A DNA stretch of 64,000 nt, from the NCBI GenBank assembly GCA_944391115.1, contig CALXSJ010000007.1:1-64000 (forward strand), given 5' to 3'. The DNA is from an uncultured Victivallales bacterium. Its GTDB lineage: Bacteria > Verrucomicrobiota > Lentisphaeria > Victivallales > UBA1829. The notes under the pieces were generated by a model that saw nothing but the letters and a program-made list of their open reading frames with translations, was not told where the DNA came from and did not search any database. A program made the translations under genes and the position numbers. Position 1 is the stretch's first letter. Each line of letters starts with the position of its first letter. Shown here in pieces: positions 1 to 53,908 of this stretch.

Positions 1-82
1 CGTGAGGGCTCCGCGCCCTCACACTCCGCGGCAGGTGTGAGACACCTGCACCCGGCAAGCAGGCTTGCCGTCTTTTTCATGA
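1..82. repeat. tandem-hairpin repeat element (copy 1, cut by the window start)
   Basis: Three perfect hairpins follow each other: arms GTGAGGGC/GCCCTCAC with a 5-nt loop (2-22), arms GCAGGTGT/ACACCTGC with a 3-nt loop (31-49), and arms CGGCAAGC/GCTTGCCG with a 2-nt loop (53-70). Read on the minus strand, the middle hairpin and its flanks (GTGCAGG...CCTGCCGCGG) match the element at 53775-53908. The element lies under the last codons of the aminotransferase gene. Its left end is outside the window. Role unknown; a REP-like or mRNA 3'-end element is one option. Confidence 0.7.
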
Positions 83-18194: not shown

Positions 18195-18462
18195 AATGTT
18201 TTGCCTTGTTTTCTCCTGGCTGGGAGGTTTTTTATGATTCTGACGCGGGTCCTGCTTTGCAGTTGCTGACAGCCGTTCCGGACTGTTTGATGCGCCATGG
18301 AACAGACCGTTGTTTCCGTCCGCATTTTCGCACAGTCCAATACGGAAGGAGGCATTCCTGAAAAATTTGCCGATTGTAACAACTTGAAACTCTATTAATG
18401 TAAATAATATCTTTTCCTTTCCATTCCGTCTTCTCCTATCTTTTCATTAAGAAAAATCGGGC
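18195..18462. other. leader region of the 18194-11076 operon
   Basis: About 270 nt with no credible gene. On the minus strand TTTACA (about 18399-18404) is the best -35-like hexamer, but no well-spaced -10 follows, so the promoter is not resolved. TTGTAACAA (about 18376) is a small palindrome. The stretch 18401-18460 is pyrimidine- and AT-rich. The tandem-hairpin repeat follows. Confidence 0.4.
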
Positions 18463-18600
18463 TGGCACCGCGATACTTTGCATCGCACAAATTGCTTCGT
18501 GCTTTCCAGTGAGCCCTGCTTCAGTCCAGCTGAACAATCTGGTCGCCGCAGACGAAATCCCCGATACAAGCGTGTGCTCTGCACCGTTTTTGTTCATTTC
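18463..18600. repeat. tandem-hairpin repeat element (copy 2, decayed)
   Basis: Same order of blocks as 53775-53908: GCGAT..GCATCGCA, AAATTGCTTCGTGC, TCCAGCTG....TCTGGTCGCCG, GACGAAAT.CCCCGAT, AGCGTGTGCTCTGCACCG, then TTCATT. By eye about three quarters of positions agree. Several stems carry unpaired changes, for example the second hairpin (GCTTTCCA against AGCCCTGC), so this copy looks eroded. It abuts and slightly overlaps the 3' end of the GntR-type gene. Confidence 0.7.
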
Positions 18601-53543: not shown

Positions 53544-53619
53544 GAGCTGGTAGCTCAGTCGGTAGAGCATCGCCCTTTTAAGGCGGTGGTCCAGGGTTCG
53601 AGCCCCTGCCGGCTCACCA
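53544..53619 (+). tRNA. tRNA-Lys (anticodon TTT), CCA encoded
   Basis: 76 nt. Acceptor arms GAGCTGG and CCGGCTC pair (one G-T), followed by A-CCA. The D stem is GCTC/GAGC, the anticodon stem TCGCC/GGCGG closes loop CTTTTAA (anticodon TTT, Lys), and the T arm is CAGGG-TTCGAGC-CCCTG. A T-rich run (TTTCTTTTTTCC) follows directly and could terminate it. Confidence 0.96.
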
Positions 53620-53774
53620 TTTCTTTTTTCCCCTCCAGGCGGACCACTGCTCGGATTGTCTGATTTTCCGGCTGCTTTTGAGCGTAAGTGCGTTGGACTG
53701 TTTGAATCATGACTCAATCGGTCTGATTTGCAATCAGAATTCCCCATGCTATTTTATTAAAAATTGGGGTGAGT

Positions 53775-53908
53775 GGTGCGATGCTCTGCATCGCAGAAAT
53801 TGCTTCGTGCAGGACTGTCAGTCCTGCCGCGGTCCAGCTGCGCAAGCTGGTCGCCGGAGGCGAAATTCCCGATCCGAGCGTTTGCTCTGCACCGGGGTGG
53901 TTCATTCC
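53775..53908. repeat. tandem-hairpin repeat element (copy 3, intact)
   Basis: Five hairpins in a row: GCGATGC/GCATCGC; GCAGGACT/AGTCCTGC with 3-nt loop; CCAGCT/AGCTGG with loop GCGCA; TCGCC/GGCGA; GAGC/GCTC. An outer pair GGTGC (53775-53779)/GCACC (53889-53893) can close the set into one branched structure. Shares flanks and loop sizes with the element at 1-82 (minus strand) and blocks with 18463-18600. The surrounding 361-nt gap (53620-53980) has no gene. Confidence 0.75.

What the first reader, a model, noticed from the sequence alone, without database searches (positions are those of the whole stretch)
53775..53908. Tandem-hairpin element whose arms change but whose pairing, loop sizes and flanks are conserved between copies
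Seen: five hairpins within 120 nt, closable by GGTGC/GCACC. Compared with the minus strand of 1-82: hairpin 2 is GCAGG-ACT-GTC-AGT-CCTGC here and GCAGG-TGT-CTC-ACA-CCTGC there, so three base pairs differ with matching changes on both arms; flanks GTGCAGG and CCTGCCGCGG are the same; hairpin 3 has fully different arms but the same 5-nt loop pattern GCG(C/G)A. Compensatory change points to selection on structure. It fits no repeat class I can name. Inference: a dispersed REP-like or mobile structured element.
Basis: seen in the sequence. Interest (0 to 1): 0.72.

Follow-up and report, generated by a model that had tools for sequence, protein, structure and literature searches.

The report
Stripped-down jumping gene with DNA guide
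The hairpin cluster is one of many copies of a ~150-base mobile DNA element that has no gene of its own, is almost certainly moved by a single-strand-DNA transposase still found in related gut bacteria, and carries a short internal guide whose one-letter changes match the landing site of each copy.

Summary
The hairpins are real. They are the body of a 148-bp non-autonomous IS200/IS605-type element (PATE-like; 53758-53905) inserted 3' of TTTAT, between tRNA-Lys and the next gene. The own genome has at least 55 strict hits to its hairpin-2 frame; two sister species have 37 and 78 hits to a slightly stricter pattern. Near-identical copies sit at unrelated sites. Three sites show clean empty alleles in sister species, exactly at TTNAT|T, with no target loss or duplication; a fourth is consistent.

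The same ends (guide, subterminal hairpin, TTYAT) flank Y1/HUH TnpA genes in other Victivallales. That TnpA is of the ISDra2/IS608 kind, not RAYT. The window's own genome has no intact TnpA.

The variable target base (TT[X]AT) pairs with the guide base 5' of the left hairpin in 49 of 65 independent insertions (permutation mean 21.4, maximum 38 in 100,000), giving T:A, C:G and G:C subfamilies. This looks like natural retargeting by guide mutation, known before from engineered IS608.

An internal two-hairpin block does covary across families; its function is unknown.

The parts
53758..53905 (+). whole non-autonomous IS200/IS605-type element (148 bp), cleavage placed after TTNAT at both ends
   Evidence: exact end by homology with ISDra2 TTGAT| and the empty sites of other copies
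53753..53757 (+). left flank target TTTAT (followed by T)
   Evidence: sequence
53768..53776 (+). left guide GGTGAGTGG; base A53772 pairs with target base T53755
   Evidence: (L018 row)
53809..53827 (+). hairpin 2, GCAGGACT-GTC-AGTCCTGC; 5' arm core unpaired in about a third of the family
53828..53842 (+). possible pseudoknot: CGC 53828-53830 with GCG 53840-53842 in the h3 loop, exchanged for TTC/GAA in other copies
53834..53850 (+). hairpin 3, CCAGCT-GCGCA-AGCTGG (internal block)
53851..53863 (+). hairpin 4, TCGCC-GGA-GGCGA (internal block)
53868..53873 (+). right guide CCCGAT; base G53871 pairs with C53903 of the right cleavage site
53901..53905 (+). right cleavage site TTCAT
18448..18597 (+). 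second, diverged copy of the element in the window (target TTCAT at 18443-18447, guide GGCTGGCACC: C pairs with G)
53544..53619 (+). tRNA-Lys gene upstream of the insertion
1..82 (-). different tandem hairpin repeat that shares only the hairpin-2 frame; not part of the element

Best explanation
The feature is a non-autonomous element of the IS200/IS605 family (TnpA-only, ISDra2/IS608-like mechanism; the class called PATE in haloarchaea). Both ends have the family's asymmetric layout: target TTNAT | short A-rich linker - guide - hairpin at the left, and guide - hairpin - TTYAT | at the right. Shown here: dispersed copies, precise empty sites, the same ends on tnpA-bearing elements of relatives, guide/target pairing. 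Inferred from the known mechanism: a Y1/HUH TnpA supplied in trans binds the two hairpins on single-stranded DNA, cuts after TTNAT at both ends under direction of the guides, excises a single-strand circle and joins it 3' of a TTNAT that matches the left guide. A single base change in the guide moves the element to a new target class: TTTAT with guide A, TTCAT with guide G, TTGAT with guide C. Also inferred: TnpA has been lost from, or is unassembled in, the present genome.
For: Copies: 55 strict hits in the own genome, reversed-pattern control 0; two sister species with 37 and 78 hits to a slightly stricter pattern, one chance-like hit in the rest of the family. About 20 near-identical ~150-bp copies at unrelated sites. 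Empty sites in sister genomes for L025, L055, L005, e.g. GCTTCATTCGAATTC -> GCTTCATTTCAAAA...GGTAATTTATTCGAATTC; L024 consistent, with more diverged left flanks. Partner: G013 TnpA flanked by TTTATT|CTTTTGGGTTTAATACC-hairpin and CCGATACC-hairpin-TAGTTCATT; the same right end downstream of TnpA homologues or fragments in G126, G050, G029, G024, G032, G040, G061. TnpA matches NF033573 at 120.6 bits, cut-off 55, and 2fyx, 2xm3/2xqc, 2a6m in the PDB, HUH and Tyr aligned. Guide/target: 49/65 Watson-Crick + 6 wobble, permutation mean 21.4, maximum 38 of 100,000; tandem-array units, whose left flank is not a target, only 4/11; contingency p 5e-12. Right end across the order: 17/18 Watson-Crick + 1 wobble after correcting two parser slips by eye (Fisher p 4e-4). 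Literature: insertion 3' of a retained target and guide pairing in IS608 (PMC5934647); TTGAT in ISDra2 (PMC2806898); PATEs (PMC3119063).
Against: No intact TnpA of this kind in the own genome, G016 or G018; only a broken copy in the same genus (G017). Ten of 65 insertions pair neither by Watson-Crick nor by wobble. The window copy itself has no recoverable empty site. No transposition was observed. Copies of one lineage share a guide, so the permutation treats insertions, not lineages, as independent. Targets were parsed by script, with a pattern that requires xxNATY before an A-run.
Confidence: 0.93

Rival explanations
1. REP/REPIN element mobilised by a RAYT (TnpA_REP).
For: Hairpins, mostly intergenic placement, high copy number; RAYT is a relative of TnpA_IS200.
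Against: Partner TnpA scores 26.7 bits against the REP transposase model (cut-off 80) but 120.6 against IS200/IS605. Two different ends with asymmetric linkers, whole-element insertion, right end TTYAT, no GTAG tag next to the hairpins.
Confidence: 0.03
2. Classical MITE with terminal inverted repeats and target duplication, moved by a DDE transposase.
For: Ends look like inverted repeats (ACCGCGATGC...GCATCGCGGT), and TTTATT occurs on both sides of subfamily A1.
Against: In subfamily A2 the left flank is TTCATT (the empty-site sequence) and the right TTTATT belongs to the element, so there is no duplication. The apparent inverted repeat is the two subterminal hairpins with different linkers.
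Confidence: 0.02
3. A conserved structured RNA or regulatory element (terminator, attenuator) kept by selection, with dispersal secondary.
For: Internal h3/h4 block found across families with two-sided changes (95% of cells paired, 11 two-sided cells, 0/500 shuffles as high); pseudoknot-like pairs kept in 99% of cells.
Against: Insertion polymorphism with precise ends and guide/target pairing shows transposition; no Rfam match. It may still be true of the cargo block without replacing the transposon explanation.
Confidence: 0.1
4. Hairpins produced by local template switching (palindrome correction) and not by selection on structure; this concerns the internal arms.
For: The core of the h2 5' arm is either AGGAC (paired) or TCTCC/TTTCC-like (unpaired), with no compensated intermediates. 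Tandem hairpin arrays are common in these genomes.
Against: Explains arm homogenisation at most, not dispersal, boundaries or the guide/target match.
Confidence: 0.05

Closest known systems
PATE (palindrome-associated transposable elements, Haloquadratum; PMC3119063)
   Same: No transposase gene, near-terminal palindromes related to IS605-type elements, short targeting oligonucleotide, some homogeneous high-copy families
   Different: Bacterial order Victivallales; natural target switching linked to a guide base; conserved internal hairpin block; tnpA-only partner found in other genera
ISDra2 (Deinococcus radiodurans; PMC2806898)
   Same: Insertion 3' of a pentanucleotide (TTGAT, identical to the G018 subfamily target); related TnpA (PDB 2xm3, E 3e-19)
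   Different: ISDra2 carries tnpA and tnpB; no TnpB above cut-off in the 137 order genomes
IS608 (Helicobacter pylori; PMC5934647)
   Same: Guide 5' of the hairpin foot pairs with the target; target retained in the left flank; retargeted by changing the guide
   Different: Target TTAC, retargeting made in the laboratory; here TTTAT/TTCAT/TTGAT subfamilies occur in nature
REP/REPIN with RAYT (PMC8266576, PMC3116915)
   Same: High-copy hairpins between genes, related HUH enzyme family
   Different: No RAYT-type protein, no GTAG tag, two distinct ends

Membership tests
IS200/IS605 family, non-autonomous (PATE-like) | Subterminal hairpins at both ends with asymmetric linkers | tested here: met
   same layout around TnpA in G013
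IS200/IS605 family, non-autonomous (PATE-like) | Insertion exactly 3' of a short fixed target, target kept at left, no duplication | tested here: met
   clean empty sites for three insertions, a fourth consistent
IS200/IS605 family, non-autonomous (PATE-like) | Guide 5' of each hairpin complementary to the cleavage sites | tested here: met
   49/65 left; 17/18 right after correction
IS200/IS605 family, non-autonomous (PATE-like) | Y1/HUH TnpA using the same ends | tested here: met
   in relatives G013, G126, G050 and others; not found in the own genome
IS200/IS605 family, non-autonomous (PATE-like) | No transposase gene inside the element | tested here: met
   about 140-160 bp copies
IS200/IS605 family, non-autonomous (PATE-like) | Transposition through a single-stranded circle | not testable with these tools
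   needs biochemistry
REP / REPIN with RAYT | RAYT-class transposase | tested here: not met
   NF047646 26.7 bits versus cut-off 80
REP / REPIN with RAYT | GTAG-type tetranucleotide next to the hairpin | tested here: not met
   guide is GTTNATACC-like
TIR/TSD MITE | Target-site duplication | tested here: not met
   subfamily A2
TnpB / omega-RNA unit | TnpB in the same genomes | tested here: not met
   PF07282: 0 of 137 order genomes above cut-off, control genomes positive

The most novel reading that the evidence does not exclude
A natural retargeting series: one transposon family in one bacterial genus has split into subfamilies with three target alphabets by single-base guide changes, while keeping a conserved internal hairpin block that serves some function (for example exposure as single strands at the replication fork, or an RNA) needed for its success across the order.
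Probability: 0.4. Interest if true: 0.72.

Novelty: new variant of a known kind. Interest (0 to 1): 0.56.

Why it matters
Target choice by DNA-DNA base pairing in IS608-type elements was worked out in vitro and by engineering. Here dozens of natural insertions read it out: the target base follows the guide base. That gives a natural data set for the pairing code and ready-made guide variants to test. It also names a repeat that is otherwise unannotated in Victivallales and that often lies at contig ends in these metagenome assemblies.

Tried and rejected
Rfam: nothing but tRNA-Lys above threshold, and only chance-level hits next to the element. RAYT: rejected by NCBIfam score. The IS200-like TnpA of G017 and its remnants in G000 and G016 were considered as mobiliser and set aside, because the partner with matching ends is the other TnpA. 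Omega-RNA idea for the internal block: no TnpB above cut-off in the order. Viral contigs: no match. Empty site for the window copy: the intergenic DNA beyond tRNA-Lys is not conserved in G016, G017 or G018. L030 and L014 gave no clean empty site. One search misparsed two rows (G059, G134), corrected by eye (G059 is C:G; G134 is T:G wobble). The spacing script misread A1/A2; the guide positions +18 and +19 were counted by hand.

Full report
What is there. The sequence at 53775-53908 holds the five hairpins as described. It is part of a 148-bp unit, 53758-53905, between tRNA-Lys (53544-53619) and the next gene. The pattern GCAGGN{5,14}CCTGCCGCGG occurs 55 times in the own genome and never in the reversed control. 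A slightly stricter pattern has 37 and 78 hits in two of three sister species, none in G017 (which holds diverged copies), and one chance-like hit in the rest of the family. By matching contig positions, the two sisters are the uncultured Victivallales/Lentisphaeria MAGs CALXRI01 and CASEFP01. The own genome has about 20 nearly identical copies at unrelated sites, a set of diverged copies, tandem copies, and a second full copy in the window at about 18448-18597. Contig ends often fall inside copies.

It moves. For three insertions of the own genome (L025, L055, L005) the sister species show a clean empty site, in two or three genomes each; L024 is consistent but its left flanks are more diverged. 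Insertion is exactly 3' of TTTAT or TTCAT (followed by T) and nothing is lost. In subfamily A2 the left flank is TTCATT, as in the empty allele, while the right end is TTTATT, so the right copy belongs to the element and there is no target duplication. Two further sites tested gave no clean comparison, and the window copy could not be tested.

Who moves it. A profile of the element hit the DNA just downstream of two TnpA genes in G013, another genus of the family. There the whole autonomous unit reads TTTATT|CTTTTGGGTTTAATACC-CCGACCCTCTGGGTCGG-...tnpA...-CTCCGATACC-CCGCGTGCTCTGCACCGGGG-TAGTTCATT. TnpA homologues or fragments in G126, G050, G029, G024, G032, G040 and G061 have the same kind of right end, and a broken copy lies in G017 of the same genus. 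This TnpA passes the NCBIfam IS200/IS605 model, fails the REP model, and matches ISDra2 and ISHp608 TnpA structures with the HVH motif and the C-terminal tyrosine aligned. The window's genome, G016 and G018 have no homologue at E 0.001 and no intact Y1 transposase. They are incomplete MAGs, so loss and non-assembly cannot be told apart. No TnpB exceeds cut-off in the 137 order genomes examined.

How it chooses its target. In IS608 the target is read by base pairing with a guide 5' of the hairpin (PMC5934647). Here the main variable target base is X in TT[X]ATT, and the guide is GTT[N]ATACC just before the left hairpin. Among 65 insertions, excluding tandem-array units and counting orthologous sites once, X and N form a Watson-Crick pair in 49 and a wobble in 6; shuffling gives a mean of 21.4 and a maximum of 38 in 100,000. 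Three classes exist: T:A (own, G016), C:G (own) and G:C (G018, G017). Tandem units, whose left neighbour is another unit and not a target, pair in only 4 of 11, as expected. At the right end, the cleavage-site base and the right guide base behave the same way across the order (17 of 18 Watson-Crick, one wobble, after correcting two parsing slips). G018's target TTGAT is that of ISDra2 (PMC2806898). The guide base lies 12 to 19 nt inside the element, counted by hand. The mechanism itself (single-strand circle, cleavage by tyrosine) is inferred from the family.

What the hairpins are. Hairpin 1 and the last hairpin are the two ends that TnpA would bind; the last shows two-sided changes. Hairpins 3 and 4 form a block (GGTC-stem-TGGTCG-stem-CGAAATCCC) found in members of other families of the order, and also outside the element in arrays; across 14 diverse examples 95% of cells pair, with 11 two-sided changes and no shuffle as high. 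Hairpin 2 is not conserved by compensation: the core of its 5' arm is AGGAC or an unpaired TCTCC/TTTCC-like sequence. A CGC/GCG to TTC/GAA exchange joins the strand after h2 to the h3 loop in 99% of cells, a possible pseudoknot. The function of the block is unknown. An omega-RNA was considered and is unlikely without TnpB.

The comparison with 1-82 does not: that repeat is a different tandem array. 'Mobile structured element' is right; 'REP-like with RAYT' is not.

Novelty. Non-autonomous IS200/IS605 elements are known (PATEs, PMC3119063), so this is a new family of a known kind. The natural guide-linked target switching is the unusual part. Five searches of the held library turned up engineered retargeting only, among the entries looked at; this is not proof of absence.

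Noticed in passing
window 1-82 (minus); G000 C8:55046-55292, C37:22-151: A separate tandem hairpin array (units roughly 110 bp) that shares the hairpin-2 frame GTGCAGG...CCTGCCGCGG with the element but has other flanks.
   Followed up: partly
L001, L007, L011, L012, L027 and similar loci: Subfamily 'B' arrays: AATTTGCnnnGCAAATT hairpin, then the h2-h4 block, then CCGGCGGCGGTTCCAACCGC...; they lack the TTNAT ends. Loop triplets appear in both orientations (TCT versus AGA), which suggests palindrome flipping.
   Followed up: no
own-genome loci L052, L025, L054, L046, L014, L006, L003, L005, L019: In about nine own insertions the stop codon of a neighbouring gene on the other strand lies inside the element's terminal TTYATT, so insertion at such a site leaves the gene's reading frame closed.
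   Followed up: partly
L029, L003, L019, L034, L045: Tandem duplications of the element (period about 147-155 bp) that share the TTYATT junction; mechanism not examined.
   Followed up: no
G000 C35:25416-25862, G016 C3:76606-76746, G017 C2:52-408: A second, IS200-like TnpA lineage: open reading frame in G017, decayed in G000 and G016.
   Followed up: partly
L229 (G032 C36), L214, L216, L218: Arrays of very short palindromes (CACGCGTCAGCGTG and similar) next to the h2-h4 block in genus g10; the block occurs there without the transposon ends.
   Followed up: no
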